64,000 nucleotides of DNA, taken from positions 1,424,001-1,488,000 of the forward strand of contig JAHRHY010000014.1 of NCBI GenBank assembly GCA_019671135.1, given 5' to 3'. The notes beneath the pieces were generated by a model. The model made no database searches, was not told the DNA's origin, and saw only the letters and a program-made list of their open reading frames with translations. The translations under genes were made by a program, and so were the position numbers. Shown one piece after another: positions 1 to 62,516 of this stretch. The DNA comes from Linnemannia hyalina. Taxonomy: Eukaryota; Mortierellomycota; Mortierellomycetes; Mortierellales; Mortierellaceae. Position 1 is the first letter of the stretch. The number at the start of each line of letters is the position of its first letter.

Positions 1-95
1 GAGCGAGTAATTATTATGATTGATATACTTATTTCAACAGAGTTGTCAAGACAATTAACCTAGGCCATCCATGCTTGATGTGTGTAGTTGTAACC

Positions 96-8550: not shown

Positions 8551-8575
8551 ATGCTTGATGTATATAGCTGTAACC

Positions 8576-11500
8576 ATGTCCTTCTCGTCACCCCAAGCCA
8601 ATTCGGCTCCTTCCCCACCGTCCTCGGCTTCTTCTGAGCACCCGGAAATAACTGTGGATGGACAGCGTGTCCTTCCTCAAATCGAGGACACCGCAACGCT
8701 TGGACGTGCATCGTCAAAGTCGAGTGACGTTCCAACAATCGCTCAAGGATTGGCCGCCATTCAGCTAGGGCCTGCCAACTCGTTGAGCCCTCATGGACCA
8801 GGTGACACCAGCGATGCCAAATCCGTATCCACGGGCCGTTCGTCGAAGTCTGGATTCAGGAAACGTTTGTCACGATTCTTCAAAGGCGACCCCAAAGTCA
8901 AAGACACTGTTCCCGCCTCGGCAGTCATATCAGCGCCTGTTACGCTCGTTGGAACTAAGGGTCGTATCCAGCCTGCCGCACCTGACCGTAACACCGTGCC
9001 TGTCTCGTTGGGACTGCACTCACCAGCACATTCCACTGAAATGTTGTCTACGCCACTCGTTGTACCAGCTACCCAACCGCAGCCGAGCCCTGCTGCGAGT
9101 AGAACCCTCCGCGTAAACATCTTCCCCGAGAACGTTATCGAACCAATCTACAAGACCGACTTGCCCAAGCCGCATGCTCGTGTTGACAAGACCCCACAGC
9201 TTGTCTACTGCTGTAGTCTCCTCTCCAAGGCTCAAGGGCCGCTGCAGCCGATCTCAGACAACGATGTCTCTCTAGGTCCCCCCCTCGACGACAAGGAGAA
9301 GGAATGGGTTCAGCTCATTGATCCAATCTTGCAGGAGCGATATCGATGGCTTGTCGAGCAATTGGTCAGAGCGTTCGCTGACAACCCTCTCAAGGCGTCT
9401 GATGTGGTCACCGAGATCGTTCTTGTTGGTCCTGTTCTCGACCGTGACACATACCGCAGCTTGCTCTCATGCTTCATCTCCAACTTTGAGCAGACAAGCG
9501 CGCTGGATGTCACTCTGCTCCAAGGTCTTGTGCAACTGGTCGAGTGCGCCTCATCTGGATACCTTGTCGACGATGATCTGGTGAGGATCGCCACTGTCCT
9601 CTCCAAGGAGTTGTCGATTACCCACATTGGCACGAGCGACCACCCCTTGCGCCTGACATTGTCGCTCGCTCGAGTTCTTGATGTGATGGTGGCTGGCAAG
9701 GTTAAGGATCTGAACCGTGAACGAGACCATCAGCCAATGCTGCAACTCCTAGACGGCCTGAAGGACAACGAGAATGTCGTCCAAAGGTACGAGGCAACCT
9801 ACGCCTACCAGGCTCTCCAGTATGCACCAGATGACGAGACTCCGCTCCAAGTGCTGTGGAGATATGGCAAGGTTGCAGCAGCAGGCGCAGGTGCAGTGTC
9901 GAGTGTTTTCAAGTTGGATCCAGAGGGACTCCTCAAAGGCATCGAGAGTCTTCAAGAGATCGGTGCAGCGGTTGTTGGAGCTGTCAGCACAGGAATTGAG
10001 GTAGTCGAGGCCCTTCGTGTCGGTGCTGATGGGGCCGCCCGCGCATCAGAGAACAAGTTCGACTTTATGAAAAAGCGGTCGTGGTATCTCGCCCTTCAAG
10101 GAACGGCCCTCTTCATCCACCAGGGACGACTTTCAGACTTTAACCTAGTCGTCAGCCAGGCGCCATGCCGCCACAACGCCAATTTTCAGTGGGGAGTCTG
10201 TCGCCAGCTTGGAGAGATTGCAGTCGACCCGCTCTGGGATGTTCTTGTCCGTCAACAGGCCGTCGACTTTCTGGGTGAACTATACAGAAGCGGCTCTGAC
10301 TGGAAACTCCATGTCGATATCAAGCGCTGGATCCTCACCATCCTCATCCAGATCTCGGGAATATCGGATGTCTCTATCAAGGATCGCGCTGTTGCTTTGT
10401 TGCTAGACCTGAAGAAGGATGATACCACCGAGTTTCTTGGCTCTTTTTCGCTAAGCAGACGCCTCCATCAGCCAACAGCCTCTCCACTTCTCGCCCAGGT
10501 CCAAGAGATTATCAAAGTCGAATATGACCTGCACGTATTGAGGCTGATGAGGATTGACGACTACAAGCAGGCGGTCTACATCGACCCCATGGCCAAACTC
10601 AACCTCCAAGACACGGATGACAATCTCTTCCCTCTCATGGATAAGGTTAGAGACTTTATGGCCGGCGACACTCAGGTCATGCTAATTCTTGGCGACTCGG
10701 GGGCGGGAAAATCGACATTCAATCGTCACCTGGAACACAAGCTCTGGCAGGAGTACAAGGCAGGAGGCCGCATCCCGCTTTTCATCAACTTGCCATCCCT
10801 CGAGCGACCAGAGAGGGATTTGGTTGCGGAGCAATTGAGGACCTACAACTTTTTGGAGGACCAGATCCGTGAGTTGAAGCTGCACCGCCAATTCGCATTG
10901 ATCTGTGATGGATACGACGAGAGTCAGCTTACATCCAATCTGCATACCACCAACCTCTTCAACCAGTATGGGCAGTGGGACATCAAGTTGCTTATTACCT
11001 GTCGCACGCAGTATCTCGGACCGGACTATCGGAGTCGCTTTGAGCCCAAGACGGTGGATCGGTCTGCTCGCGTCGCCAACGATCTTTTCCAACAAGCCGT
11101 CATCGCTCCGTTCACCAGGGAGCAGATCGAAGACTATGTAGAGCATTATGTTCCTCTCGAGCCGCGCACCTGGGTCAAGAAGGACTACATGGACAAGCTA
11201 GAGGCTATCCCCAATCTGATGGATCTGGTCAGGAACCCGTTCCTCCTTACCATGTCACTGGAGGCCCTTCCTACCGTCGTGCAAGGGAAAACCGACCTCT
11301 CCAGGCTTCGAATCACTCGCGCGGAACTGTACGACACCTTTGTGGTGCATTGGATGGCTGTCAACAAGCGTCGCCTGCAGGATCAACATTTGAGCGAGAG
11401 CAGTCAGACAGCGCTTGACTTTCTTTGTGACGACGGGTTCGAGCGCAACGGTATTCTGTACCAGATGGATATGGCGGCGTCCATCTTTCAGAAGCAGGAT

Positions 11501-21092: not shown

Positions 21093-23076
21093 TTATTTTA
21101 TTTTTCGACGCTTGTCCTCAACAGCTGTTTTTGTTTGGCGCCGCTGTTGGCGCTTTTGAGGTAACTGAAGTTCAGGTTGGGTTTGAGGTAGTCCTTGAGG
21201 ATGCTGAGAGCTTTCTGGATGCAGGCCCGGCAGATGAATGTTGGCGATTTCCAGGTTGTAACAAATAAGAATATCCTCGAGTCGATGTTGCGCTCCCAGA
21301 CAAATCTCTTGCCAACTGTCGCCAAGGATAGATGAGACGGCCCCACGGCGATCGATGCTCCCAAACTCCTCAACAAGCTTATCGATAGTCTCGGTCTCCA
21401 TAATACACTCTGCAGTGTAAAACTCGCACTCGCTTCTCGACTGTAGAAGCTCCTCCTGCCTCCATCCAAGAATCCTTCGTCTGGCCTCTTTTTGCTGGTC
21501 GCTAGTACGCGGAAGATATGGCGTTTTTGGGATAGGCGTTGAAGTCGGATGAGAATACAGCCTGTTGGAACTGTCTAGCGGTAAGGTGCACAAGTCTACT
21601 GGAGCCATTCCTTTCCTCTTGTCGCAACCATCACAGCAGTCCAGATAGATGGTATGGGGATTGCAGAACACCGTGTTGAAAACTTTCCTGCGGCATTCCT
21701 TGGTGGTGAAGAAGGCATCCAGATGCTGATCTCGTTTTCGATAACCGTTCTTCCTGTTGGTTGTGTACACAATGCCTTGACCTCGAAGTTCCGGATTGCG
21801 TACTGCTCGGCCTAGACGTTGTGAGAGGGCGCTGATAGTCTCGGGACACTTGAACTGGATTACTCGAAAAATATCAGGGATATCACATCCCATCCCTACT
21901 GCATCGGTTGCGAGTAGGATGCGGGTCTTGCCTTCCCTGAAGTCCTGCAAACGCAAGAACTTGGCGTCCTCCGTTAGATCCGACATGAACTCGGCAATAA
22001 AACGCTTCCTGTCAGGGAACATCTGGCAGAAAAGTCGATGAGCCCTCTTGATGTATTTTTTGTCGTCGAAGTATACAATCGTCTTGGCGAGATCCTGTAT
22101 AACGGTCACCATATCCAGGAGGCACTCATCGTTGGTGGACTTCGTTTTGACAAAATACTTGATGTTGGGGCGATCACTATCGGCTTGGACAACGTTGACA
22201 TCTGGACGGAAGTAAAGGCTCGCCTTGACAGTTTGCAAAATTGCCGGAGGTAGAGTTGCCGACATGGCAACAAATGGTAAACCAGGAGGAACAAGAGCAC
22301 GTAGATCCCCGATCTTGGTGTAGGCATGCCTGAAGCTTGGACCCCACGTATGGATGCAATGCGCCTCGTCCACGATTACTGCAAGCAGTTTCGATTTCCA
22401 GCCATCCATGTTCCAGAGTCTTGGGAATCGAGTGATATTGGTCGCCAACTCAGGAGTCATGAAGACGGCCCTATACTCCCCAGCAGACAACCGATCCTCC
22501 AAGTTGCTTGGCGGTATATTGTCGCCGTGAATCGCAATACTGTTGATTTTGGCTTGCTGCAGCTTCCCTTGCTGCTCATTCATCAGCGCCTTGAGTGGTG
22601 AGATAATAACAATGATTCGATCCGTCCAGAGAAGCAAGGGCAGGAAATAGGTCAAGGACTTGCCCCAACCGCAGCCAGCAACCAGAATACAGTCCTTCCG
22701 TAAGGCAATGCTCTCAACGACCTCAAGTTGCTCTTTCTTGGGAGGAAATCCAAAGAACCGAGTACAAATGGCAACTGTATCCTTTGGAAGGGAGAGGTAT
22801 CCTCGAGGAGTCAGATTGCCAGAGTCTACAAAAAGGGTCGAAGTATCGAGATGTTCCGATGTTGAGTTGCTGAGATGTTCTGAATGGTCCAGTCGAGTCG
22901 ATCAAAAACGGGTTCTCTCCACTATGCTGCTGCTCAACCTTGCCCCATAGCTGTCTCCGGACCCCATCGTCCGCAATCATATCGTAGTCGTCCATGTCCA
23001 TGTTCTCGGAAAAGTCGCCGTCATCCGAGAGTGGCTGTAAAGCGCCGATAGGACTGGCCAACGGTGAAGGGGCCAT
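21093..23076 (-). CDS. RecQ-type DNA helicase of the transposon
   Basis: Superfamily 2 helicase starting at the ATG at 23076, inside the right TIR. Visible motifs: motif I LVAGCGWGKSLTYFLPLLL, ISPLKALMNEQ, motif II IVDEAHCIHTWG, motif III FVAMSATLPP, motif V-type ILLATDAVGMGCDIPD, motif VI ALSQRLGRAVRNPE, and a RecQ-like cysteine cluster (CCDGCDKRK). It would unwind DNA in the nucleus, probably serving the element. The first about 80 codons are in a different frame from the helicase core. The change falls between about 22725 and 22900, either a one-base shift at the A/T run 22830-22834 or an intron ending at an AG near 22829 with a weak donor. The C-terminus is Gln-rich and basic. Confidence 0.85.
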
Positions 23077-37606: not shown

Positions 37607-37991
37607 GGACACATCAATGACGACCCAGTCAATCGCGCCGGGAATGGAGGAGGAGGGAAGGGTGATAAGATCGAGATGAAGAGAGAGAGGGAAGGAGGGC
37701 AGACGCCCATGAGGAAGAAAATTATTTTTGGTACTGCGCTGTACATAAAGCGAGATAGAGGTGAGAGGTGACAGATGGTGTTGAAAATATATCTGCTTTG
37801 CCACTCTTGTTTCCCATTTTTCCAAGAGTCCTTTTCTCCCCTCTTTTCTAACAGTCTTTTTCTCCCCTCTTTTCCATACTCATTCTCAACGCCTTCTCGT
37901 CAATCGTCACCTCTAAAATACCCGCCTTCTCCTACTCGACTACCCACAAGCAAAGAACGCAATTGCCATATTGCCATTCCCACTTCATCAG
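37607..37991. promoter_or_regulatory. Promoter of the F-box gene
   Basis: About 385 bp with a CT-rich stretch at 37785-37900 and the leader just before the ATG at 37992. Parts recur in the inverted copy near 60623-61000. On - it contains an open frame ending IPNAW that is also conserved there. Confidence 0.45.
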
Positions 37992-40451
37992 ATGTCGGGC
38001 AACACCCCGGACAACTCACTGCACAAACCCTTTGCAGCGGAACAACTGCCCTCTGTCAACCCCATAAACTCGCCCTCCGTCAACTCCTTAAACTCGCCCC
38101 TCGTCTCTCTTCCACCCAACATCCTCAAGCTTGTCACCTTCTATTTGATCGATCCTCTCGACCTGCTCCGGCTCTCATACACCTGCCATGAGCTACTCTC
38201 GCTCATTACCCCTGCCGACTGGTATTCCCTGGCTACTTACACCTATACCAACTGGGTCCAATCTTGTGGTGGCCCTAACGCAAGAGATTGGAAGACGATG
38301 GTCCTCAGGGACGCTGCCTTAGGGGTCCGTCTTGGAGCTACTCTCCCTCTCCCTGACGTTACTTCGTCCATGTCGTCCCCAATTTCTTCCGCCCTAACGA
38401 CTGTCTCTTCCCACTCGACGTCTGCTATGTCTCTTCCAATCTCAGGGACCTCGCCTACTACAACAACTGACGTCATCCCATCAAAGCCTTCGCCACATCC
38501 CTCACCGTTACCCGCCGACTCTGAATGGCCGCAATGGACGACCGGTGCCTCCCCCCACCTGCCTTCCTCCTTGGACGAGTTTAACCGTCGCCGCCCTCTC
38601 AGAGTCAAACTTTCCGAGGCACAGTTCTTCAAGACTGACTTAGAGACCCAAGATTCCCCTGGTGCCCCGTGGGTACGCATGGGATCCCCAATATACGACA
38701 TTGATCGAGACTCTCACACTGCCATTGCCGCCTCGATGATCACCCGTCCAAAGTCCGTTCTCTCTCAGAGCAACGGTAGCGGTCCTCGCCCTCATGATCA
38801 TGGGATCCTGTTCTACAATTTTCCCGATCTGACGAACCCTATTGCTCGTTGCGGCAGTGATGTGTGGGAGAAGGACATAAAGACCGGCACCCAGGCACAA
38901 CCTTGGTACCATCCCTTCACCCGCGACATGATGCAAGTTGCACAAGTGGTCGAGATCAAGCACTACCCCGAGGATACCGTTGGGGGCATGCGTGTCGTCG
39001 TTGTCATCGCTTTCGGACAGCGTGCTCGTCCTTGGGTCAATAACGCTACCAACTCCCACATCCTTGGCGTTTGGCTGATGCTCAAGGCTATCGAGGTGAG
39101 GGTACCAGTGGCACCCATGACCCGTCTGTCCAACTGGATGATGAATCATTTCCGATCATCGTCAGGTCTTGAACCCAAGGTGGCTAGGGAGTGTTTTCGG
39201 ATCAACCCTGACAGTGTTATCAAGTACGAGAGTATAGATCCTCACCTGGGCGCGATCACAATGTACGGACGCATCGTCAAGCTTTACTCTGCGTTCGAAC
39301 CTCGTCCACTTCCAACGGCGACTACTGAAGATGGTCAGCCATCAACAACTATGGACATGGATACTGGGAGGATGGTTGATTGCATCACCATTTTTAGCAT
39401 CCAGAACTCGGAAATGGCATCGGCGATGATTCTCAAGAAGGTCCTTTTCTGTGATGACGACGCATCGGACCTAGGCAGGAAAACCTGCTCGAACAAGGCT
39501 CTGAGTCGCGGAGTGAGCTGCATGACGTTGTTTCCGGATCACAGTGGATACGGGCACTATCTTGTCTTGATCAACCAGCACGGAAGAGGCATGGTGTGGG
39601 ATTGGGTTCACGAGAAGCAGATCACGCAACTCCACATGCCCATCGATAAGAGCAAGAGCACTGGAGACCGGAGAGTTAACGATGAACCAGCGAACATCGG
39701 AGTCGTTACTGGCAGTGCCTTAGCGACGGCTGGAAACCCGGCGGGCGATGCTATCGTGGACGGGGCTCCTTCTCGTCGCCGCAGAGTGTACTATTGGGGC
39801 GTGCAGGTCAGCGCAGCCCTAGAGGTCTCTTTCCCGGAGGATTTGAACAATGTTGACAACAGCAACGGCACTTTCAGGATTGTCACGATGGCGGATGGCT
39901 CTGACGATGAGTGGGAGTCATGTTGGTGGAACATCACCATCGACGAGTTACAGCAACCAATGGCATCGCTGCCAGCGCCACCGATCATCGATGGGATCAA
40001 GTCAGGATCGAAATCAAATGCGACCAACGCGCCCAAGCCCCCTTTGATTTCGAGCGTCAAGCGTTTTGAGCGCAAGACCTACGGCGTTTGTATCCCCGAG
40101 CAACAAAAGACACATTCGGCCGAAAACAACAAACCTATCCATTTCATTTCCTACGTTATTTGGAATCACTACAGGATCAGTTTGTCGTCGCAAATGGGTA
40201 TTTGCATGATGGATTTGGAAGAGCCCGAGTCTCATCTTGTTGCCGATGGACAGTGGATCACATTCCTGAAGGACCGTGAGGATCTGATCGACATTGCCGT
40301 CTTTGGCCACAATCTCATCGTTACTCTCAAGACTGGCCATCTCGTCTGGTCGTTCTACGGACAAGACAGGACACCGTTCGTGTCCAAGGAAGGACTCGGT
40401 CTCCGCATGCACAAGGGACATAGTTCGGAGAGCGATAGTATGAATATTTAA
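37992..40451 (+). CDS. F-box protein
   Basis: Intronless gene of 819 residues. The F-box-like segment is at about residues 37-80 (LPPNILKLVTFYLIDPLDLLR, LSYTCHELLSLI), followed by WYSLATYTYTNWVQSCGGPNARDWKTMVLRDA. Residues 110-180 are Ser/Thr/Pro-rich. The long C-terminal part (VEIKHYPEDTVGGMRVVVVIAF, HYLVLINQHGRGMVWDWVHEKQ, FRIVTMADGSDDEWESCWWN) looks like a beta-rich substrate-binding region, but I cannot name a fold. F-box proteins usually recruit targets to SCF ubiquitin ligases through Skp1. The ATG at 37992 (MSGNTPDNS) is chosen because the inverted copy keeps the same start (MSGNT). A broken paralogue is at 58140-60622. Confidence 0.82.
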   Translation: MSGNTPDNSLHKPFAAEQLPSVNPINSPSVNSLNSPLVSLPPNILKLVTFYLIDPLDLLRLSYTCHELLSLITPADWYSLATYTYTNWVQSCGGPNARDWKTMVLRDAALGVRLGATLPLPDVTSSMSSPISSALTTVSSHSTSAMSLPISGTSPTTTTDVIPSKPSPHPSPLPADSEWPQWTTGASPHLPSSLDEFNRRRPLRVKLSEAQFFKTDLETQDSPGAPWVRMGSPIYDIDRDSHTAIAASMITRPKSVLSQSNGSGPRPHDHGILFYNFPDLTNPIARCGSDVWEKDIKTGTQAQPWYHPFTRDMMQVAQVVEIKHYPEDTVGGMRVVVVIAFGQRARPWVNNATNSHILGVWLMLKAIEVRVPVAPMTRLSNWMMNHFRSSSGLEPKVARECFRINPDSVIKYESIDPHLGAITMYGRIVKLYSAFEPRPLPTATTEDGQPSTTMDMDTGRMVDCITIFSIQNSEMASAMILKKVLFCDDDASDLGRKTCSNKALSRGVSCMTLFPDHSGYGHYLVLINQHGRGMVWDWVHEKQITQLHMPIDKSKSTGDRRVNDEPANIGVVTGSALATAGNPAGDAIVDGAPSRRRRVYYWGVQVSAALEVSFPEDLNNVDNSNGTFRIVTMADGSDDEWESCWWNITIDELQQPMASLPAPPIIDGIKSGSKSNATNAPKPPLISSVKRFERKTYGVCIPEQQKTHSAENNKPIHFISYVIWNHYRISLSSQMGICMMDLEEPESHLVADGQWITFLKDREDLIDIAVFGHNLIVTLKTGHLVWSFYGQDRTPFVSKEGLGLRMHKGHSSESDSMNI

Positions 40452-49688: not shown

Positions 49689-50669
49689 GCATCGAAGGAT
49701 CATCATGCCCATGCCGCATCACCATGCCCTTCCTGGCTGCCGTCTGTCCCCCTGGAAGCATGATGATCTTCCCTCCTTTTTTGTACTCTGTGCTTTCCTT
49801 TGTGTATTTACCCGCCCTGTATCATCATTCCTCTCCATGCTCCTCCCAGTTTGTAATATTAATTTGTTTTAGTGACTGAGATCAAGTGACACCTAATCTT
49901 ATCTGATCAAACAATCAAAAGATACACAACGTGATTGGCGGAGCCGTTACCTTTGCTCCCCTTAGGCTCCTGAATCCTATTCGGTTGTGATCTGGGCGAA
50001 GCAACGCAAGAGCCATGGCTAACAGCTTCCCTTTTTTTTGAGTATGACTTGTACTATCATCACCAACGGCGCGTGACCCGGTGACTAGTGCGTTCTTTAT
50101 GCATTCTTATTTTCCTGTAGCCATATTCTTCAGCGGTGATAAAATGAAATACTGTTGGTTCATCTCATTAGAAGGAGGTTCCCAAAAGGCGAATAAGAAG
50201 GATAGCGATAGCGATAGCGACTGCTTTATAGCGCCGTGCGTTGTGTGAGGAAATAGAGAGTGGGTGTGTAGCTTTTCTATTTCCTTCCCGGTTTTGCTAA
50301 GCATTCCCACATTGTAACACTTGCATGTGTTCACTCCCCTACTCAGACAAATGGAAAAACGAGAAACAAAAAAATGGGAGCGAGCGAATTTTTAGGACAT
50401 GGGCAACGACGGACAAGGAGAGAGAGAGCGAGAGAGAGAGAGGGAGAGAGAGACAGAGACAGATACAGAGAGGGGGGCCGCAAAGTTACACGCCATGTCA
50501 TTTGTTGTGGTGTTCACAACCAAATAAAAAAGGACAAAAAGACGCCGACAACGGGTGTTTGACCATTTATGGCAGAGATTAAAGAGGGTCTCTGTCTTAT
50601 CCCTTCGACCGTTGCCAGTCACAAGGATAACTTGGTAAGACCTGTTCGGGGTCTTTACAATTGTGAAGG
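49689..50669. other. 3' flank of the XPG-Fanzor gene and intergenic region
   Basis: No protein gene seen. A GA-rich simple repeat spans 50416-50475. The stretch just beyond the Fanzor stop (about 50400-50669 on -) is where guide (omega/f) RNAs are usually encoded in TnpB/Fanzor loci, but I cannot show an RNA here. Confidence 0.4.
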
Positions 50670-53600
50670 TTAAACGCTGGGCCGAAGGAGAGAGATCGGT
50701 CGAGACTGATCGAAAAGCCATTGCTCAGCGATCAGTGCAATGTTGTGAGCTCCAACCGAGTCCCTGTTGATCCATCGACCACAGGCGAGGCAGACACAAG
50801 ATCTTGAAGTCGGCTTTGCCATCCTGGAGGTCTCTCCTCGGGCAGTGCAAGCTGGGCAAACGGTCGAGGACAGATATTCATCAACCAAAACGACAATGTG
50901 GCCATGTGCTCGCGCCTACGTTAGATAGAAGATTGACGGTTATTGAATGGTCCCATAGCATAACGTTGACAATTGAGCAAGTAAATAATTGTTTGTCGCG
51001 GCATAATGACGGTACCTTCTTGGCAAAATGACTCTGTAATGTCTCATGCTTGGAAGCCAAGTTTATCCCCGTTCGAAACTTGCCGTTGCCAATAGCAATA
51101 AGACACGGCTCCGGTCCACAAAAGCGCAGGATTGCAGCCACAGCCATATCCAGTTCGGCACGAACGGCTTTCTTCTCCTCCCAGGCGGCTTTTTTCATGC
51201 GTAGTGAGCCTTCAAACTCCCGAAGCAAGGGCTCCGTAGACACTCTGACACGAACAGCATCCTCGAAATCCTCCACGGTTACTTGGCCTTTTGGGGGCAA
51301 ACAACTTTCGATCTCCTGGATGGACTGTACGTCTGTCCTGGCTCCCTTTGGATCGACACCCCTCGCCCAAATTCCTCCATCGATACTCTCGCCCGGCACC
51401 ACTTGAAGCTTCCTGTTTTTGACTCTCTCTCTTTCGGATCGCGCTGCAGTGGTGGGAGAGTATAAAGCTGCTCGACGTATCATTAGGTTGGTCACAGGTG
51501 GATCCCCAGGGTCTGGTGCTCCATTCCACTCACGTTCGTGCTCGATCAGACATAAAGCCGCCGTCACCAACTCCCCAGGGTCCCACCCGCGACATTGTGG
51601 TATTTTTCCCTGGAATATCCTGGCGATAGCGTCCTCATCAGGCAAGACTTTTTCGATACGCATGACTGGATCCAGGGCTCCATGTGGCTCGTGTTTGGTG
51701 TCGTAGGCGAGGACCTGCAGCTCCAAGCCGTTACTTCGAATCATATTGTTCAAAGCATAGCGTGATTTTGTACTGGGGTTGGCGGGAAACTCTGGCGGTG
51801 ATTGCGTACATGGTACTCCTTCATCCCGACAGTTCGCAGCAGCTCGAAGGTAGGCCAGCTTCCTGTTACAGTAGTCCTGCAATGACCGATAACCAAACCT
51901 AGAAGGATCACCTTCCGCAAGTTCTGCCATTCTTGTCGTCCGTTTTGCGTAGGGTGTCCGTCTCAGGTCTGGTCCTCCGTCGTTGTCGTGGCCAACGGGT
52001 CTTCTTCGCCCATAGAAAAGCGTCTCAAGCACTTTTCCATAGTCCGAATCAACACAATCCGACGCCTCCGCGCGACTCAAAATCGTCTCCACGATCGTCT
52101 TGGCTGGATTGTTCCTCGCAGTTCCTCCCCATAGAATTCTCCACACTGCTCGCTCCGGTATCATCACAAACGCACCCCGAAGCTTCGGCTGAGGACAGAA
52201 CACAGGTCGCTTCTCTGCAGGTAGCGAGAGTAAGTGGTCCCACCAATCCCTGAGAAAGCCCGCCTTGAACTTGTAGCATCCGTCGTCGTCGGCCGCATAT
52301 TCGTCTGATCCCAGGGGCTCAGTCGTTGGAGATTCGTCTAGAGCGTCGTCGTCCTGCTGTCGTTGGGCTTCAGGAGGCACGTCTCCGTCAACGAGAGGTA
52401 TGATGTCTTTGCTCCATCCCAGTTTTACCATCTACACAAAAGCGCGGGTAAGACATTGTTAGAGTACGAAAAACATTTTGACATTGCATCAAACATAACT
52501 CAAACAAGAAAGAAATAAATACCTTTCCAGTGACAGTAGACGGTAGCTTTCTGAAGTGTGTGTGGAGACATACCATCGTGGCAAGTCCAAACTCCATCTG
52601 CATGTCGCCCAGGGGGATGTCGGTAGTGTTAATGGGCGAAAAGTGGGGAATGATCGTCTTGTATCGGGCATAGACCCTCTGTGCGAGCTCTCGAGCACGG
52701 ATGGACTCGGACTTCTTGCACTTTTTCTCAACAATCTTTCCATTCAAGGCCAACGACATTAATCCACGGATGAACATCTGACCGGAAGCCTTGTTCATCA
52801 CCAGGTCCAGCAGATCGACATTCGTCTCCCCTGAGGCTCCTTGCGGGCTAAACACTGTTGTGACTTCTTCCAGTAAAAACAGCTGTATCATCCTGAACAC
52901 GTGGGGACGAGCTTCATTGATCAGGCTCGTGGCCTTCTCCAGGAGGCTCGCAATGGTGTCGACTTGGTCATCAGAGATCCCGAGGGGTCGAAGGCTACGG
53001 CGCAGGCATCCTTTCAAGGAACCAACTGTCTGGGTTATCGTCGGAAAAGCAAACTTGAAAGCGTCCTTAAGTTTTGGTGCTGTTGGGGTTGCATCGATGT
53101 CGCGTGGTCTCGCGAGTTTTTTCTTGGATGACGCCTTCCGTCTTTTGTTCTTCGACGAGCGGTCTGTCGACGATGACGAGGATGCTGAAGGCGAATCTTC
53201 AACAGCCTTGGGCTGCTTGTCGACGGGTCGCTTTTTTGGTTGTGACGGGGACATTGTCGACAGTTGATTATCAGAAACAGGGGTGGCTGTCGACGGATCA
53301 CTGACTCTGTGGGGAGAGTACCGAACCTGATTGTCAGTGCGAGACTTGAACCTAATTAACCACAAAAAATAATAATTAGAGAGACTTAGAAACATTTCCA
53401 TAACTTGTGCAAACCCGGAGACGTCAATGTGATATTGTCTTACCTGGATTTCCTCCATTTTTTACGTTTCCTGTTCCTTTTCGCTGCCTCCCGGCGAGCT
53501 CGCTGCGTTTTCGCTGTCCTGGTCCGATTTACATTCGTTTTGGGAGCCGGCTTCTTGTCCTCCATCGGTGGTGTGAATCCCATTGCCGCACGTGCCTGAG

Positions 53601-55066
53601 CCTCTGCAACCTTCTGGTACTCAAGATCGAGCAGTGCCCTCATGACAATCTCGTGCGCATTACAGTCTCGCTGCCCTCCCTGCTCAATCGATGTGTGCTG
53701 TTGACTGGTAAAAGGCTGAGGGTGTGGGTTCTGATCAACGGAGGATACGGCATCTTCCTGGACGCCCACAAAGGCAGATAAAGCATGCTCGAAGTCGTCA
53801 ACCGTAACCGATAGCTGCGAGTCGATTCGTTTTCGTTTCTTCCGAGGGACTCTCTCGGAAAGAAGCTGGTGTCGCACTCGAACGAGAAACTCGTGGACGT
53901 ACCAATGAAACGATTCGACGTCAGAGCCGGGTAGCTCCATTTCCCGAATAATCTCGCAGATCTTCTTGATCCCGAAATATGGCACTCCCCGGGTGTAGTC
54001 GTTGCCCGTCACAACAGCCGCGAGTAGTAAATGCCGCTCCGAAGGCAAATCGAGGACCTCCAAAATCGCATCCTTTTCGAAAAGAGTGAGCTCTCTTGAC
54101 TTGCCGATCGGATACAACACTCTCGGCACAGCCCCGAAACAAATCAAGTCCGAATCACCGGAGACAACAATGATGTCCTGGGGATTCAGAGACTGGGCAC
54201 AAAGCTTAGCAATGCAAGTATCCGACTGAAAGCGGCAGAGGCATACATGGCAGTCGTACTTTTTGATCAACTCCGCTATAACTTCTCCTTGAATTACGGT
54301 TGTTGGCTTGTAGAGATTCCTGCACCGTTTGTAAGCAGCCTTTCGACGAGATCCACCCACTACACGTGCTTGTTCGATTGCTTGGTGAAGTGCGTCGGTG
54401 CCCTTACGCAGCTTGTCGTCGCGAGCTCGGTGCTCCGCCTGTTTCTGAATGGATGGCTCTCCATCGAAGTGAAGGGTGACAGATTCGTCTTCGGGAGTAC
54501 AGAACTGAGAAAGCTTCCTGTACAGTTCATCTGCAATGTGACCGAAGAACTATTTCAAGCAAACGACGACATAGCAAATGATAATTAACTAATCAAGTAA
54601 ATAATCACCAGTGGACCCATGCTAAATCCCGCATTCAGTCCTCAAGAAGATTCATTACCATAACTCTCTGTTGGTCCGTGCCATCCTGTAACATCCCATC
54701 TTTGTCAACGACGACAGAGTCGGGGCTGTTGGGTCCACTCGTCACCATAGCAAGCTTATCTTTGAGATCAAAGAGCATGTTCGCACGTCTCAGAAGGTCC
54801 GCCTGGGCATCGTTCGGGTCTGGAGAGGCAGAGTCTGTCGACTCGGGTCGCTCTGGCGCATCCTCCATCTGTGGCATGTGCAGGTTGGCGGGCTCGGTGT
54901 TGCGCGTCAGCGTGGTCGTGTACTTTTGTACGACAGAGTAGGCTCGCGCCTTCATCAACCCGTAGTAGGTACCGTTCATGTCGACGTGAAATTCCTTGCC
55001 GTTCATTTTCGCCGGCGCAATGCCCGTCGCGTTCTTTATCTCTCCTGGGAGTCCGTTGACGCCCAT
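50670..55066 (-). CDS. Predicted XPG/FEN1-like nuclease fused to a Fanzor (TnpB-like) RuvC nuclease
   Basis: Five exons: 54659-55066, 53444-54549, 52523-53351, 51016-52431 and 50670-50915. All junctions are GT-AG and the joined frame is open for 1334 residues. N-terminal part: XPG/PIN-like nuclease with MGVNGLPGEI, FHVDMNG, LHFDGEPSIQKQ (Asp165), FQSDTCIAKL (Asp246), VVSGDSDLI (Asp268, Asp270) and TGNDYTRGVPYFGIKKI (Asp320). A basic linker (KRNRKRKKWRK, then PKKRPV and KNKRRK, likely nuclear localisation signals) leads to a Fanzor-type region: RuvC-I RGWDPGELVTAALCL (Asp1065), INLASKHETL, VDEYLSS (Glu1266, candidate second catalytic acid), zinc finger CPAC...CVCLACG, and RuvC-III INRDSVGAHNIA (Asp1305). 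Known family function is RNA-guided DNA cleavage; the fusion is inferred from splicing. If intron 2 is retained, a stop follows KWRKSR and an XPG-only protein results. A 5' leader intron may end at TACAG just upstream of the ATG. Confidence 0.85.
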
Positions 55067-55200
55067 GACTGACTGTAAAGGAAAGAATGAAGAAAAGCTC
55101 ATCAGAAGATGGAAACAAACACCACATTGGGCGGACAATGTCGGCGGATTTGAAACGTGATAATACCTTAATGAAGCAGGGGCGTGAGCCGTGCGGATGT

Positions 55201-55292
<92 letters not shown>

Positions 55293-55924
55293 AGGGGTGG
55301 GGTGGAGGTCGCAGTGATTGGATGTCAGAAGTTGGTCGATTGAGTCTAATTGGTTTTTTTGTTTGTTGACAATGACGTCAGTACATTCCTTTTGGTTTAA
55401 AGGGTGGGAAGTTGGCTGCCAATCACAAAAAGTCAGCTTACTGTGGCAAGGTTTCTGGCGCGTGAGCAGTTGATCTGTTGACAGAATGAGGTAAAGTCGG
55501 CCATGGGGTTAGCGAGGTCCTGGTATTGATTGGTCATCCAAGCTGACGCCAATAGACGGAGAGCGATGCACTTACAGAAGACTAGGTGTAGCTCTGGTTT
55601 GGATCTCTGTCCTGATCAACGATGTCCACTTAGGATTCCATGAGCGAACTTGGCAAAGGTGTTGGAGTGGGAAAAGGCAGCCCAAGGACATTTTATTTGC
55701 TCCCAAGCGACGCGACGCGACAGGCGGTCTTTTTTTTTTTTTTGGCGTGACCCTGTACCCCTTGACCGTTCACACATTCAAAAAATTCGTGCTAGTCACA
55801 TGCACCGCCATATGTTAACAATCCGAAAAGGCATTAGGGGCCTTTATTTTTTGTTCTTCATATCTGTTATTATCTTGCATTAGTATCAGAGGGGTGCTTC
55901 TCATTACTGGTTAAGCAACTACAA
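55067..55924. other. Promoter side of the fusion gene, with a (GT)n tract
   Basis: No gene seen. It includes the microsatellite at 55201-55290 and ordinary sequence with CCAAT-like (gccaatcac, about 55418) and ATTGG motifs that could serve the divergent side of the XPG-Fanzor promoter. Confidence 0.4.
55201..55290. repeat. (GT)n microsatellite
   Basis: About 90 bp of nearly uninterrupted GT dinucleotides, 135 bp upstream of the start codon of the XPG-Fanzor gene. Open frames here encoding poly(Cys-Val) are artefacts of the repeat. Confidence 0.98.
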
Positions 55925-57855
55925 CTACGATTTATGGAATTCTCTGAAGCAATTGCGGGCCTTTGACATACACAAGGCAACATTGCAGATCTCACAGGCT
56001 ATGACTGTTTGAGTTTTTCTATCGTGGTTTTTGTCGTCGAAGACAGTGGCTCTGAAGCGACAGAACAAGCAGTTGGATTTTTGGTCGAGAATTATGGGTG
56101 AGTGGGGTCCTGGGGTGAAACGGATGGTGGGCAGATCAGAGCAATTTTTGGTAACATATATCTTCTTGGTTGGTTCTGGTTTGGTGGCTCTGTGAACTCG
56201 TGTCCGTTTGCTGTAGTCCATGTGCTGTTTGCTTTCTGCTCCCTTCCTGATCAAATCCCATGCCAACCTGAGACAGAAAGTTTTGTGAGAAAGGGATCCT
56301 TTTTGGACGACATAGATTCGATAGGCGTTGATGATGGTGGTGTCGAGAATCCAAAAAAGAGAGGCATCCACGTCCTGAACACGGCTAATTGGGTGCTGTA
56401 ATATGCCCTGAACTGGTTACTGACATCGACGCCATTCATGTTGTGGTTGTAGTCATCAATCAACTTGGGGATTTTGAGTGCCGCTCTGGGCTTGCCATTG
56501 AATATTGCCCGAGCATTGGCTGCGTTAGTGCTAGTGTTGCGAGGGCAGCGTCGAATACGCTCAATGAAGTCATCATCCGTGTTGATTTTGTGGATGGTAC
56601 TCAGCATGGTGACGGGTGCATTATCCATCCAAACGACGGCAAGAACTTGTTTGTCGATAACAACTCCTGTCAGGGTATTCCATTGTAGTTTCTCACTCTT
56701 ACCCACTTTCAAAGTGTCAGGGAAGCAGGCTGAGTTGATGCGGGTGGTACCACATGCGCCGATGTTGAGTCCACGTAGGTGCTTGAAAAGCGGGATGTTG
56801 GAAAATAGTTGTCCATGTAGATGTTGAATGGACGAGTCTTGTAGGGGAGTGATTTGGCAAGACGAACAACAGCGGAAGAGGTTGGAGTAAGCCCGTTTAT
56901 CCTGTCTATGCCAATGATGGATTTGATGCGAGGGGTGTAGAGGAAGGAATAGGTGTATCCTGATTGACAAAGAGCGAGAATCTTGTAGCCTTCCGGGGGT
57001 AGGCTTACCCTTCATGCGTACGGTGTGAGCACTCCTTCCTGAAAAGCGAACAATCATCTCGTCGATGGACACATTGGTGGAGAGAACGTAGTAACGAGCG
57101 AAGTCGGTAGCGAGTTTGGTCGAAAGAGGTTCTACTTTTGAGAACCAATGTTGCTCAGGCTCGTTGGGGTTGGAGACACGAAAAAAACGCTTCGGTTGTT
57201 CGAAGCGGACGAGGGACATGAAGTTAGTGATGTTGTGTTGAGGACATTCAGGGAAGGTTGACCAATACTCAGAGACAGAGTTCTGCCTGAACACGCCCAT
57301 GTAGACAATGATGCCGAGGAATGTGCGCAGTTCGTCAGGTGTGGTCTTTACCCATTGGCGCGATCCCTCTCTTGTGCCGGCTCCTTTTGATGCTGCATAT
57401 GCGTTAGTGTTGTCTGCCAAATCCGTCAATACCGGGTCGGAGAAGAAGAGTGTGAAAATTGTCAATGGTGATAGTTCGCTGTCGAGTTGAAGTGCAAGGG
57501 GAAGGTTGGTTTGTGCTGAGCATACTGTTTTTTGGTGTTTGAAGACGTCCTTGAAGTCAGGGACGGCTGGGAGTTCTGTGGGTTCGCGGGTGACTTTCTT
57601 GACAGCCCTCTTCGCTTTCTTGACAGCCCTCTTCGCTTTCGCGAGAGCTAAGGGTGCAGGGGACACCTCCTCTCCCGCCGGTTGCTCTCTTTCTGGTGGT
57701 CGCTCTTCATCATCGGAATCATCCTCACCGGCAATCTCTCGAGTTCGGCAAATGACCGAAAACGACAACTCCTCTGTCTCCTCGGAAGTGAGTGTGCTAG
57801 TACCTTGACCGTTAGAAACGTCAAAGGAACGTAGGAACTCGAAGCTTGGGTCCAT
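55925..57855 (-). pseudogene. piggyBac-type transposase pseudogene
   Basis: From the ATG at 57855 (MDPSFEFLRSFDVSNGQ) the frame shows the DDE_Tnp_1_7 pattern: TPDELRTFLGIIVYMGV, SIDEMIVRFSGRSAHTVRMKGKP (first catalytic Asp), YMDNYFSN (second), and YNHNMNGVDVSNQFRAYY (third). It ends with a cysteine-rich zinc finger (CLFC...CEICNVALC, then H). Three single-base indels break it: an extra base after KGKPTP (about 56990), a compensating loss just before FSNIPLF (about 56805), and a loss in the T6 run after WMPLFF (about 56355). Between the first two, about 60 codons are read in the wrong frame without a stop, so a long ORF survives although the protein is garbled. Typical piggyBac ends with TTAA targets were not convincingly located. 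Confidence 0.85.
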
Positions 57856-58139
57856 GAGCAGGTTGGGCGAAGTTTTCTTTGTGAGGGAGACAGTAACGGA
57901 GGCTTTGGAGATGATGAGAGAGAAAAAAAAGGTCGAATTTGACAGCGAAGGTGGTAATGAGGCGAGCTGGGAAACGACAACCCTCGTTGTTTTCATTAGA
58001 CGACACGAGACCCTTCCCAACCCGTTTTATTGGAAACCCTGATAAATTGAAAAAGAAAAATTGGAACCAATTTCGATTCTAAAACGGTTGAAGGGATACA
58101 AAAAAAAGAGTCGGCCCCTTCCTACCTATTTTTATTTTT

Positions 58140-60622
58140 TTAATCTATCATTCTACCTGCGCTACCATATCCAGCTGTGCCCAAATGAGAAATGGAATAA
58201 ACAAGAGTGATGTCACACTGGAATGGCTCCCACTCGTTGTCGGCTCCTTTTGTTAGTGCGACGATCCTGTAGGCCCCGCTGTCCTTGTCAGTCATTTGCC
58301 TGTGTTCCTTTGTCCTGCATGTATCATCCATACCCATATATAGTTGTATGAACCTTTTTTCTTGATCCAGTCCCAGACCTCTCCTCTCCCGTAGTGGTGA
58401 AACATGCCCAGCGGGTGCTCATAGTCATTGCAATCCAGAAACGAGGTCACTTTTGCTGACAACAATCGCCGTTGCACAAATGTAAGTGGTGGATACCAAA
58501 AAGGGTGACTCGAACAATCTTCCCACATGAAAGGATTAGTATCCACGCGAATTATTTCCTGCCTGTTTTTCAGACGGAGCCACAGAAATGGCTCATCGTC
58601 CAGTTGCAGATACGGGCCATGAGTGTCACTGGTACCCTCACCTTGATAACCTTGAGCATCAACCAAACGCCAAGGATGTGGGAGTCGGTAGCGTTATTGA
58701 CCCAAGGACGAGCACGCTGTTCGAAAGCGATGACAACGACGACACGCATGCCCCCAACGGTATCCTCGGGGTAGTGCTTGATCTCGACCACTTGTGCAAC
58801 TTGCATCATGTTGCGGGTGAAGGAGTGGTGCCAAGGTTGGGCCTGGGTGCCGGTCTTCATGTCCTTCTCCCACACATCACTGCCGCAACGAGCAATAGGG
58901 TTCGTCAGATCGGGAAAATTGTAGAACAGGATCCCATGATCATGAGGGCGAGGATCGCTACCGTTGCTCTGGGAGAGAACGGACTTTGGACGGGTGATCA
59001 TCGAGGCGGTTATGGCGGTGTGAGAGTCTCGATCAATGTTGTATATCGGGGATCCCATGCGTACCCACGGGGAACCAGAGGAATCTTGGGTCTCTAAGTC
59101 AGTCTTGAAGAACTGTGCCTCGGAAAGTTTGACTCTGAGAGGGCGGCGACGGTTAAACTCGTCCAAGGAGGAAGGCAGGTGGGGGGAGGCGCCGGTCGTC
59201 CATTGCGGCCATTCATAATCGACGGGTAACGGTGAGGGATGTGGCGAAGGCTTTGATGGGATGACGTCAGTTGTTGTAGTAGGCGAGGTCCCTGAGATTG
59301 GAGGAGACAAAGCAGACGTCGAGCGGGAAGAGACAGTCGTTAGGGCGGAAGAAATTGGGAACGACATGGACGAAGTAACGTCAGGGAGAGGGAGAGTAGC
59401 TCCAAGACGGACCCCTAAGGCGGCGTCCCTGAGGACCATCGTCTTCCAATCTCTTGCGTTAGGGCCACCACAAGATTGGACCCAGTTGGTATAGGTGTGA
59501 GTGGTAAGAGGGTACCAGTCGGCGGGGGCTGTGATGAAAAAAAGTTCATGACAGGTGTATGGAAAACGAAGGAGGTTGAGTGGGTAGACAGCGTAAAAAA
59601 TAAAAGGCTTTAGCAGTAAGGAAGGAGGACTGAGGCGATGCTGGTTCTGTGACGATTGTGAAGGTATGGTAGTCGTCGTTATTAGTGTTGAAATGATGAC
59701 CATAGATGTGTTAATCTGGGTAAAGACGGTTATAGGTGTTTAGGTTGTCTTGAGAGTTTATATGGTGATCGAGGGTGGAGCCTTTGGGGTCGAAGGAAGG
59801 ATGAAGTGAATGTGAGTTTGATTACATCCAATGTTGTCGTTATGATTTTTGGGAGGAATGAGATTTTTTTTACACATGGCACAGTCAATTTTGTGGCGCA
59901 AAATTACCCGTAATTTGAAAGGGGAGGTTTTGATGCCTCAGCAAATGTTTCGCCAGATTGCAGGCTGAGAGACAAGATTGATGGGAAGCGACAAGTGTCC
60001 TTTTTAACTGAAGCCGTCATTCGGTAGAGGATGGCGGCGAATCGAGTTCGAAAAGCATATACGTGGCGCTTCGGTACACCCAGGTGAAAGCACACCAGAC
60101 AGGGAATAGAAAGTCGGATTGTTGGAGTCTGACGACAACACCACAGTTGCACTGAACTGAGCAGAGTCGCAAAATACGATTGACGGTTGGAAAATTGCAC
60201 AACGACCTGATCGCATTGACGGATTGGAACTCGATGCAGTCGACCATAAGAGAACTTGAAACAGGGTGCCATCGAAGTGGATTGTCGAGTTGAGGTACCG
60301 TTTCGGAAAACAGGTGAGAAAGGCGTCCGTCAGGTAAGAAGTCGCCAAGACTGTAGCAGCAGTTACCGACCGAGGTATCCAGGGTCAGGGAAAGTTCTCT
60401 AGTGCAATTCAGTGACGAGAGTGTCCATAGTGACGAGCGTGGAGTGTATGGGGACTAAGTGGGACTTGGGTAAGTGAAAGGAAAGGGTTCTTGACCAGGT
60501 CTCATTTTTGTTGTTTTTTTTGTTTAGGGATGGGACATCCACGGGGCACGAGGTTCTGCTTGTCTGGGATAGATGGACCAAAGATATGTTACAGAACTGG
60601 GCGAATGAGCTGTCTGGGTGTT
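58140..60622 (-). pseudogene. Inverted, broken copy of the F-box gene
   Basis: The start (MSGNTQTAHSPSS, ATG at 60622) matches the F-box gene at 37992. Within about 20 codons the copy is interrupted by roughly 0.9 kb of unrelated sequence that includes repeat copy 1. It resumes at about 59660 with FPYTCHELFFITAPADWYPL and stays nearly identical to the intact gene to about 58570 (NWTMSHFC). Beyond that it turns into a more diverged paralogue (YGRGEVWDWIKKK, YRIVALTKGADNEWEPFQCDITL) with frameshifts, ending at TAA 58141. This suggests a chimera or partial gene conversion. Confidence 0.75.
59935..60545. repeat. Direct repeat R1, copy 1
   Basis: Nearly identical (about 95 percent by eye) to 61525-62145. 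It contains a 114-codon - frame without stops in both copies (here 60004-60348), but that frame has no ATG start and no recognised homology. Confidence 0.8.
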
Positions 60623-61242: not shown

Positions 61243-62516
61243 CTAGGCTACTTGGCAAAAGGAGATGATTAAGGTGTCGAATTGGATGGGGGTTCTGCTT
61301 TTCTGGAATTGATGGATCAAAGGTTTGCACCGCCGATTTGTTTTTATGCCAGAAAATTGATAATTTTTGTGGCGCAGCTTTAATTTGAAAGGGGGGAAGT
61401 TGTCGATCGTTCGTCGGGAAGAGAATCATAAAACAAAATCGGGAAAACAGAGCAACCAAAAGAGTAAGTGTGTCAATGCTCAAAACGACCATGAACGCAC
61501 AAAAAGGTCCGCGGGAAGGAACCTTTGGTTGATGCCTCAGCAAATGTTTCGCCAGCTTGCAGATTGACAGGCGAGATTGATGGGAAACGACAAGTGTTCT
61601 CTTTAACTGAAGCCGTCGTTCGGTCGAGGATGGCGGCCAGTCGAGTTCGAAAAGCATATATGTGACGCTTCGGTACACCCAGGTGAAAGCACACCAGACA
61701 GGGAATAGAAAGTCGGATTGTTGGAGTCTGACGACAACACCACAGTTGCACTGAACTGAGCAGAGTCGCAAAATACGATTGACGGTTGGAAATTTACACA
61801 TCGACCCGGTCGCATTGACGGATTAGAACTCGATGTAGTCGACCATAAGAGAACTTGAAACAGGGTGCCATCGAAGTGGATTGTCGAGTTGAGGTACCGT
61901 TTCGGAAAACAGGTGAGAAAGGCGTCCGTCAGGTAAGAAGTCGCCAAGACTGTAGCAGCAGTTACCGACCGAGGTATCCAGGGTCAGAGAAAGCTCTCTA
62001 GTGCAATTCAGCGATGAGAGTGTCCAGATTGACGGGTGTGGAGTATAAGGCGACTGAGCGGGCCTTGGGTAAGTGGAGGGAATGGGTTCTTGACCAGATC
62101 TCTTCTTTAATTGTTTTTTTTTGTCTAGGCATAGGGTGTCCATGGGAACAGGAGAGGTTGTAGATCGTTCGTCGGGAAGAGAATCATAAAACCAAATCGG
62201 GAAGGCAGAGCAACCAATAGAGTAAGTGTGTCAATGCTCCAAACGACCATGAACACACAAAATGTCCGATGGAACAAAACGAGCGCATGAAAATTTTCCT
62301 AATGTGAGCCCTTGTGGGATGGACTGGTTTGCCATGGTGGATGCTCCTTGTGTCATAGTGCCAAACAAAAAGGGCGGAAACGTCTGGTGTTTCGACAACG
62401 GCAGTGGTGAGAAATGAGGACTCTTGAAAGGAAATTCGAGTGTATTTTCTTTTAAATAGGGTCCCTGCTCCAGCACCAAAAAAAAAAAAAAAAAAAAAGA
62501 CAATAACCAAACACAC
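61243..62516. other. Repeat-rich spacer
   Basis: Contains repeat R1 copy 2 and two copies of a separate repeat of about 110 bp (61395-61505 and 62155-62268, 'gatcgttcgtcgggaagagaatcataaaa'). A run of 20 A (62479-62498) lies just before the next small gene. TTTAAATAG at 62450 may be its TATA box. Confidence 0.5.
61525..62145. repeat. Direct repeat R1, copy 2
   Basis: Second copy of the 59935-60545 segment, in direct orientation 1.6 kb away. The 114-codon - frame is at 61603-61947. Confidence 0.8.

What the first reader, a model, noticed from the sequence alone, without database searches (positions are those of the whole stretch)
50670..55066. XPG/FEN1-like nuclease naturally fused to a Fanzor RNA-guided nuclease
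Seen: five exons with GT-AG borders keep one frame open for 1334 codons, and the XPG/PIN motifs (Asp165, 246, 268, 270, 320) precede the Fanzor RuvC (Asp1065, Glu1266, Asp1305) and zinc finger. Known: Fanzors are TnpB-related RNA-guided DNA nucleases; XPG/FEN1 enzymes cut flaps and bubbles. Inference: one polypeptide could make a guided cut and process the resulting flap or R-loop, which might help element copying, homing or genome defence. I do not know of a described XPG-Fanzor fusion.
Basis: partly seen in the sequence, partly recalled or inferred. Interest (0 to 1): 0.93.

Follow-up and report, generated by a model that had tools for sequence, protein, structure and literature searches.

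The report
RNA-guided cutter fused to flap nuclease
Soil fungi of the Mortierella family carry many copies of a gene, in this window inside a 7.5 kb jumping element, that is predicted to make one protein joining an XPG/FEN1-type DNA nuclease to a Fanzor RNA-guided DNA cutter; it would likely cut a guide-chosen site and trim the broken ends so that the element is copied back in.

Summary
The reading holds and undersells itself. The minus-strand gene (55066 to 50670, five GT-AG exons, 1334 codons) encodes an XPG/FEN1/EXO1-family nuclease followed by a Fanzor. It lies in a 7.5 kb element with inverted ends (50598-58098) and a DDE_Tnp_1_7 transposase gene. The host assembly is Linnemannia hyalina (contig lengths).
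The fusion is conserved. Of 90 Fanzor zinc-finger places in this genome, 62 have an XPG match upstream on the same strand. The junction intron is phase 2 in all eight families where it was modelled; four have no start codon for a separate Fanzor near the junction. Of 38 homologous proteins 21 match both halves in one chain, under 13 taxon names, all Mortierellaceae. Most catalytic residues of both nucleases are kept and the halves diverge together (r = 0.94); dN/dS is 0.25 and 0.22.
No paper in the searched library pairs Fanzor with XPG, Mortierella or PIN domain. Transcripts, guide RNA and both activities are untested; a guided cut followed by 5' resection for homing is inference.

The parts
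50598..58098 (-). Whole mobile element (7.5 kb); reads from left end at 58098 to right end at 50598
   Evidence: Sharp right boundary in 8 of 8 assembled copies; left boundary read in 5 copies: window, C11, C22, C4a, C8; not reached in C4b, not found in the piece fetched for C4c, and C33 loses similarity left of about 56370; inverted ends; uninterrupted paralogous sites for one copy
58083..58098 (.). Left terminal inverted repeat AACGGTTGAAGGGATA (+ strand)
   Evidence: (pair I23, 94% complementary over 16 nt)
50598..50613 (.). Right terminal inverted repeat TATCCCTTCGACCGTT (+ strand); families B and C end in the same AAGGGATA
   Evidence: 3 copies each of B and C
55925..58026 (-). Transposase reading frames: 56251-58026 (DDE_Tnp_1_7) and, in another frame, 55925-56416 (zf-Tnp_2, weak)
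   Evidence: PF13843 E = 1.2e-40; PF13842 E = 0.0012, below cut-off
50670..55066 (-). XPG-Fanzor gene, five exons, 1334 aa
   Evidence: conserved gene structure
54659..55066 (-). Exon 1: XPG N-terminal region, first catalytic Asp29
53444..54549 (-). Exon 2: XPG core (Asp165, Gln244, Asp246, Asp268, Asp270, Asp320) and basic linker
53352..53443 (-). Junction intron (92 nt, phase 2, GTAAGA...TTAG) joining the two nucleases; the apparent XPG stop is inside the donor
52523..53351 (-). Exon 3: FKSRTD junction peptide, linker, Fanzor recognition-lobe region
51016..52431 (-). Exon 4: Fanzor RuvC, Asp1065 (DPG)
50670..50915 (-). Exon 5: Glu1266, zinc finger, Asp1305 (Cas12f1-like TNB)
   Evidence: PF07282 E = 5.3e-10
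50598..50747 (-). Predicted guide-RNA scaffold at the element's right end (overlaps the coding end); the guide would be the flanking DNA just below 50598
   Evidence: Last 150 nt fold with z = -3.2 in this family, but -0.6 and +0.6 in families B and C; inference by analogy with Fanzor elements

Best explanation
A gene inside a DNA transposon of the fungus Linnemannia hyalina is predicted to make one 1334-residue protein with an XPG/FEN1-type nuclease at the front and a Fanzor RNA-guided nuclease behind it, which would likely cut the element's empty target site and then chew back the 5' ends so that repair copies the element in. Shown by sequence: the two nuclease families, their order and strand, the conserved splice junction, mostly conserved active-site residues, similar selection on both halves, and residence in a multicopy element with inverted ends. 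Inferred: that the mRNA is spliced as modelled; that a guide RNA arises from the right end with the flanking DNA as guide; that the Fanzor half makes the break; that the XPG half, held at the break, acts as a 5' exonuclease or flap nuclease. Resection would push repair from end joining, which would spoil the target site, to recombination with an element-bearing copy, so the element would be restored after cut-and-paste loss or spread to an empty allele.
For: One frame across five GT-AG exons. XPG half: profile matches to XPG/FEN1 chimera 6vbh 2e-8, Rad2 6e-8, EXO1 5e-7; Fanzor half: PF07282 5e-10. Foldseek's 32 best hits for the XPG model are FEN1, EXO1, Rad2, XPG or T5 FEN (best E 1e-3), and its 6 best for the Fanzor model are SpuFz, GtFz and PpFz (best E 5e-6) (low-confidence models). 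44 of 69 locus groups hold both halves on one strand with XPG before Fanzor; 2 of these 44 also have a Fanzor piece before the XPG. 62 of 90 TNB places have XPG upstream on the same strand against 3 downstream and 1 on the opposite strand. Junction intron phase 2 in 8 of 8 families; in B, C, G and H no Met lies in the open frame upstream and the first Met of exon 3 is at residue 114, 137, 87 and 59. 21 of 38 homologues match both in one chain, 13 taxon names. In 19 fused proteins: FEN1 D86-, E160-, D181- and D233-equivalents 19 of 19, D34- and D179-equivalents 16 of 19 each, RuvC Asp 18, Glu 16, Asp 18 of 19. dN/dS 0.25 (XPG), 0.21 and 0.22 (Fanzor parts), 0.56 (linker) over 8 copies. Distances of the two halves correlate, r = 0.94 over 19 proteins and 0.79 in clade 2 alone, 0 of 2000 permutations each. 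Transposon ends and uninterrupted sites. Exo1 does long-range resection that gives 3' tails for recombination (PMC7555059, passages).
Against: No RNA or protein data were available. Gene models in databases are predictions, and none seen spans the whole window-type gene. Clade 1, including the window copy, has Gln in place of one XPG glutamate (6 of 19). XPG_I is below Pfam's cut-off for the window protein. Structure models are poor (pLDDT 43.5 and 44.9). 5 of 8 window-type copies carry a stop, a frame-breaking insertion or exon deletions. Families A and F do have Met codons in the open frame inside the junction intron. The guide-RNA fold is not significant in families B and C. 9 of 38 homologues match only the Fanzor half and 28 of 90 TNB places have no XPG match upstream. 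Two of the 19 fused proteins have lost residues of both sites (P0023, P0025). No self-targeting or homing event was observed.
Confidence: 0.5

Rival explanations
1. The XPG half serves the transposase, not the guided cut: it would process flaps, gaps or hairpins left by excision or insertion of the DDE transposon, and the fusion merely keeps the two accessory nucleases together.
For: The window element carries a transposase gene beside the fusion; XPG nucleases have been described in another DNA transposon superfamily, Academ (recalled; the listings showed no paper on it).
Against: XPG is fused to the Fanzor in each of the eight families whose junction was modelled, and the distances of the two halves correlate at r = 0.94. 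Whether other families sit beside a transposase was not tested properly: only plus-strand frames of about 1.4 kb upstream were listed for a few of them, and none looked like one by eye.
Confidence: 0.2
2. The XPG half is mainly a DNA-structure-binding module that holds the Fanzor on bubbles, R-loops or forks, with little or no cutting of its own.
For: Gln244 in clade 1 (6 of 19) and loss of the D179-equivalent in 3 of 19 proteins.
Against: Four carboxylates are invariant in 19 of 19, and all 13 clade-2 proteins keep Glu-x-Asp; 8 of these 13 have all seven carboxylates.
Confidence: 0.15
3. Two neighbouring genes, not one: XPG stops at the TAA at 53440-53442 and the Fanzor starts at its own ATG, for example near 53254 or inside the intron.
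For: The unspliced XPG frame does end at the donor in 7 of 8 families; families A and F have Met codons in the open frame within the intron.
Against: That stop lies inside the splice donor; in family C there is none for 49 codons; in B, C, G and H there is no Met in the open frame upstream and the first Met of exon 3 is 59 to 137 residues in; the peptide on both sides of the junction is conserved in A to F; 8 of the first 9 homologues are modelled across it.
Confidence: 0.06
4. The fusion is a genome-defence or competitor-cutting nuclease: guides would be aimed at other mobile elements.
For: Three window-type copies (C22, C11, C8) sit beside sequences found at 3' ends of other XPG-Fanzor families, so their flank-derived guides could match those elements.
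Against: Such nesting is also what insertion into repeats would give; no guide RNA was observed.
Confidence: 0.09

Closest known systems
Fanzor1 (SpuFz1/SPu-1, PpFz, GtFz)
   Same: RuvC Asp/Glu/Asp with zinc finger; low-confidence fold search ranks SpuFz, GtFz and PpFz first; sits in an element with inverted ends and TA at the borders; SPu-1 has inverted repeats and putative TA duplications (Bao and Jurka 2013, PMC3627910, passages).
   Different: SPu-1 encodes a single 633-aa Fanzor; here about 500 residues with an XPG nuclease precede the Fanzor, and a DDE_Tnp_1_7 transposase gene is in the element.
FEN1 / EXO1 / XPG (Rad2) nucleases
   Same: Core motifs and carboxylates; profile and fold matches.
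   Different: Inserted loops, Gln for one Glu in clade 1, fusion to an RNA-guided nuclease, multicopy transposon setting.
piggyBac-type transposons (PF13843)
   Same: Transposase domain E = 1.2e-40, terminal inverted repeats.
   Different: Borders read TA, not the TTAA expected of piggyBac (recalled); carries XPG-Fanzor.
Engineered Cas9 fusions made to favour homologous repair
   Same: Same design idea: a guided cutter tethered to a repair factor (yRAD52-Cas9 in PMC7555059, passages; PMC6503098, start of abstract in the listing).
   Different: Natural, conserved across a fungal family, and with an XPG/EXO1-type nuclease as partner.
Academ transposons with XPG nuclease (recalled)
   Same: An XPG nuclease carried by a eukaryotic DNA transposon.
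   Different: No Fanzor and a different transposase, as recalled; not checked in any call.

Membership tests
Fanzor1 | RuvC catalytic Asp, Glu next to the zinc finger, Asp | tested here: met
   Asp1065, Glu1266, Asp1305; 18, 16 and 18 of 19 fused proteins
Fanzor1 | TNB-type zinc finger | tested here: met
   PF07282 5.3e-10; 14 of 14 members of A5
Fanzor1 | Overall fold like solved Fanzors | tested here: inconclusive
   Top six Foldseek hits are SpuFz, GtFz, PpFz, but the model has pLDDT 44.9; no sequence-profile hit in the PDB for A3
Fanzor1 | Residence in a transposon | tested here: met
Fanzor1 | Guide RNA from the right end | tested here: inconclusive
   Structured 3' end in family A (z = -3.2), not in B (-0.6) or C (+0.6); no RNA data
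Fanzor1 | RNA-guided DNA cleavage | not testable with these tools
   needs biochemistry
XPG/FEN1 nucleases | Sequence-profile relation to XPG/FEN1/EXO1 | tested here: met
   2e-8 to 5e-7; XPG_I precomputed by the database in P0013, P0014, P0015 and found at E up to 1e-3 in 4 of 14 members of A5
XPG/FEN1 nucleases | Seven active-site carboxylates | tested here: inconclusive
   Six of seven in the window protein, Gln for E158; all seven in 8 of 13 clade-2 proteins
XPG/FEN1 nucleases | 5' exonuclease or flap endonuclease activity | not testable with these tools
   needs biochemistry
piggyBac element | DDE_Tnp_1_7 transposase | tested here: met
piggyBac element | TTAA target duplication (recalled) | tested here: not met
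   None of the five copies with both flanks read has TTAA at its left or right border; all read TA there; so it is not filed as a canonical piggyBac

The most novel reading that the evidence does not exclude
A natural cut-and-resect enzyme: one polypeptide in which an RNA-guided nuclease makes a programmed double-strand break and its own XPG/EXO1-type domain immediately resects it, committing repair to recombination. Nature would thus have built the guided-nuclease-plus-repair-factor fusion that genome engineers have tried to make, and would have used it across the Mortierellaceae to home transposons.
Probability: 0.42. Interest if true: 0.94.

Novelty: new variant of a known kind. Interest (0 to 1): 0.87.

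Why it matters
How Fanzors help their transposons is open. A second nuclease, fused and under selection like that on the guided cutter, is a direct clue that what happens to the DNA ends after the cut is part of the job, and it makes that question testable by mutating one active site at a time. It would also offer a ready-made guided cutter that steers repair to recombination. XPG upstream of 62 of 90 Fanzor zinc-finger places in one genome and 21 of 38 homologues matching both halves make this a lineage-wide architecture; names seen on such records were 'hypothetical protein', 'Exonuclease 1', 'XPG-I domain-containing protein', 'PIN domain-like protein', 'Cas12f1-like TNB domain-containing' and 'putative transposase'.

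Tried and rejected
Two adjacent genes: rejected (see rivals). Chance linkage of an XPG gene: rejected, 62 of 90 upstream and same strand against 3 and 1 (it used all 67 matches and 58 of the 101, recounted; the rest repeat loci or were short overlapping pieces). Fanzors lacking XPG as an equal partner type: 28 of 90 TNB places have no XPG match upstream; I read 3 of the 28 and all are truncated or full of stops; the other 25 were not read. Exact target duplication: the joined C11 flanks and the four empty paralogous sites differ by 2 nt, so TA is likely but not settled; TA could also be the element's own end. Joined C22 flanks found no uninterrupted site. Guide-RNA fold: significant only in family A. 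Family C's representative has a premature stop at residue 476, in the XPG half, and was left as it is. L019 and L023 did not show the junction motif: a diverged family whose XPG match is broken into pieces, and a copy in which the XPG frame runs straight into RuvC sequence. A search of solved structures with the Fanzor profile A3 found nothing, and with the single exon only a chance hit. Protein searches scored only the roughly 8000 candidates sharing most words, so absence outside Mortierellaceae is not shown.
Full report
WHAT WAS CHECKED. The finding is real. Two things were not in it: the gene is cargo of a transposon, and it is one member of a large family.

THE TWO HALVES. Residues 1 to about 400 belong to the XPG/FEN1 superfamily. 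By single sequence the match is weak (XPG_I E = 0.09, 5_3_exonuc_N 0.004), but a profile of seven diverged family members matches the solved XPG/FEN1 chimera (2e-8), Rad2 (6e-8) and EXO1 (5e-7). That alignment puts Asp165 on FEN1 D86, Gln244 and Asp246 on E158 and E160, Asp268 and Asp270 on D179 and D181, and Asp320 on D233 (FEN1 numbering recalled). The C-terminal part has the Cas12f1-like TNB finger (5.3e-10), a DPG RuvC-I Asp, the Glu next to the finger, and the final Asp. A profile of 14 database proteins of a second clade matches Rad2 with positions 76-286 and LaTranC (a TnpB-like nuclease, as recalled) with positions 1165-1228: one profile with both ends, at the modest E-values of 7e-4 and 5e-3. 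AlphaFold models were poor (pLDDT 43.5 and 44.9); even so, Foldseek's 32 best hits for the first are all FEN1, EXO1, Rad2, XPG or T5 FEN entries (best E 1e-3) and its 6 best for the second are SpuFz, GtFz and PpFz (best E 5e-6). I treat that as supporting only.

ONE GENE, NOT TWO. The unspliced XPG frame ends at a TAA, but this TAA is part of the splice donor GTAAGA. I modelled the junction in eight families: A (window), B, C, D, E, F and two of a distant second clade, G and H. In all eight the junction intron is phase 2, 92 to 107 nt long, with a GTRAGN, GTATGT or GTAATT donor. In A to F the peptide across it is conserved (KWRKS-RFKSRTD and variants) although the XPG parts are only 27-41% identical among families A, B, C, D and F. 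In family C the XPG frame runs on 49 codons past the donor, so there is no stop codon to conserve. In B, C, G and H there is no Met in the open frame upstream of exon 3, and the first Met inside it comes at residue 114, 137, 87 and 59; A and F do have Met codons in the open frame within the intron, and D and E have one 23 and 32 residues into exon 3. In A, B, D and F the four introns lie at matching places with phases 0, 2, 0, 0, chosen by me from scored candidates; the third intron of B had tied, weak donors. Database gene models agree: 8 of the first 9 homologues are modelled across the junction, and P0010 (KI688_002751) equals my model of H over 1335 residues. For the window family itself no single database model spans the whole: P0002 covers residues 1-730 and P0001 covers 439-1334, both crossing the junction.

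HOW COMMON. Grouping XPG and Fanzor matches gives 69 loci: 44 with both (2 of them with a further Fanzor piece before the XPG), 6 with Fanzor only, 19 with XPG only. With the zinc-finger family as a probe, 90 places pass the cut-off; with XPG matches from two queries 62 of the 90 have XPG upstream on the same strand (median gap 3.07 kb), against 3 with XPG downstream and 1 on the other strand. Three of the 28 without were read; all are decayed. Three protein searches gave 38 homologues; 21 match both halves in the right order, under 13 taxon names: Linnemannia hyalina, schmuckeri, gamsii and elongata, Entomortierella parvispora, Haplosporangium gracile, Podila verticillata, Gryganskiella cystojenkinii, and Mortierella sp. 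14UC, GBA35, AD031, AD010 and GBAus27b. In 3 of the 21 (P0008, P0009, P0028) the XPG match is a piece of 81 to 122 residues; dropping them loses no taxon name. Of the other 17, 7 match XPG only, 9 Fanzor only and 1 neither. One species of each of the six genera was looked up and all are Mortierellaceae. The searches scored only the candidates sharing most words, so wider absence is not shown.

SELECTION AND CO-INHERITANCE. Over 8 window-type copies dN/dS is 0.25 for XPG, 0.21 for the recognition part, 0.22 for RuvC plus finger and 0.56 for the linker; 3 of 8 copies keep the whole frame (window, C4b, C33), and GT-AG is kept at all four introns in all 8 (a ninth copy, C1, was left out of the counts because its Fanzor half was not fetched). 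In 19 fused proteins (4 own models and 15 of the 21; the other 6 were left out as more partial) four XPG carboxylates are in 19 of 19, the first Asp and the D179-equivalent in 16 of 19 each; the E158 position is Gln in the 6 clade-1 proteins and Glu in the 13 of clade 2. RuvC residues are kept in 18, 16 and 18 of 19. P0023 and P0025 have lost both the D179-equivalent and the RuvC Glu, which may be decay or loss of both activities together. Pairwise distances of the two halves correlate at 0.94 (19 proteins) and 0.79 (13 of clade 2), with 0 of 2000 permutations as high.

THE ELEMENT. Eight window-type copies diverge abruptly beyond 50598; the left end at 58098 was read in five of them, was not reached or found in two, and C33 loses similarity left of about 56370. 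The ends are inverted repeats, TATCCCTTCGACCGTT and AACGGTTGAAGGGATA; families B and C end in the same AAGGGATA. A transposase gene (PF13843, 1.2e-40) lies upstream of the fusion. All five copies with both flanks read have TA at both borders. For the C11 copy four uninterrupted paralogous sites exist at 85-87% identity, with a 2-nt ambiguity over the exact duplication. The fungal Fanzor element SPu-1 also has putative TA duplications and inverted repeats (PMC3627910, passages).

MECHANISM. Shown: two nuclease families in one conserved, co-inherited gene structure, inside a mobile element in the window family. Inferred: the mRNA is spliced as modelled, the right end gives the guide RNA, the Fanzor half cuts the empty site, and the XPG half resects or trims the 5' strands at that break, so that repair uses an element-bearing copy. 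This follows from what Exo1 does at breaks (PMC7555059, passages) and from the known RNA-guided cutting by Fanzor (PMC10432273, passages). Service to the transposase, a binding-only role and competitor cutting are the rivals.

LITERATURE. No paper in the searched library holds Fanzor with XPG, Fanzor with Mortierella, XPG-I with TnpB or Fanzor with PIN domain. In four Fanzor papers (PMC10711439, PMC10432273, PMC11423790, PMC3627910) I searched for terms and read passages, not whole texts; words such as flap or fusion gave nothing about a nuclease fusion. Subscription papers are mostly not in the library.

VERDICT. A real, apparently undescribed, conserved fusion: a new variant of Fanzor. The architecture is nearly certain (about 0.93); the mechanism is a reasoned bet (about 0.5).

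Noticed in passing
C22, C11 and C8 copies (flanks): Window-type elements sit beside sequences found at 3' ends of other XPG-Fanzor families: the C22 right flank holds family D's 3' sequence; C11 and C8 flanks hold GGTGACGTAATT, found after clade-2 Fanzor genes. Could be target preference or nesting.
   Followed up: partly
P0023 and P0025 (Mortierella sp. GBA35, AD031): Both nuclease sites have lost a catalytic residue in the same two proteins.
   Followed up: no
window 24-5642 and 8540-14068, + strand: Two paralogous giant ORFs with a P-loop motif and WD40-like repeats, by eye, like fungal NLR proteins.
   Followed up: no
window 21093-22901, - strand: DEAD/Helicase_C protein, RecQ-like by eye (PF00270 6.4e-20).
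   Followed up: no
window 58585-59583 and 38154-39152: Inverted duplicate, 93% identical over 999 bases, of part of the gene at 37917-40451, next to the element's left end.
   Followed up: no
window 59930-60401 and 61529-62000: Direct repeat, 94.9% identical.
   Followed up: no
window about 56360, transposase frame: A T-run differs by one base between copies, which shifts the transposase frame between them; described only.
   Followed up: no
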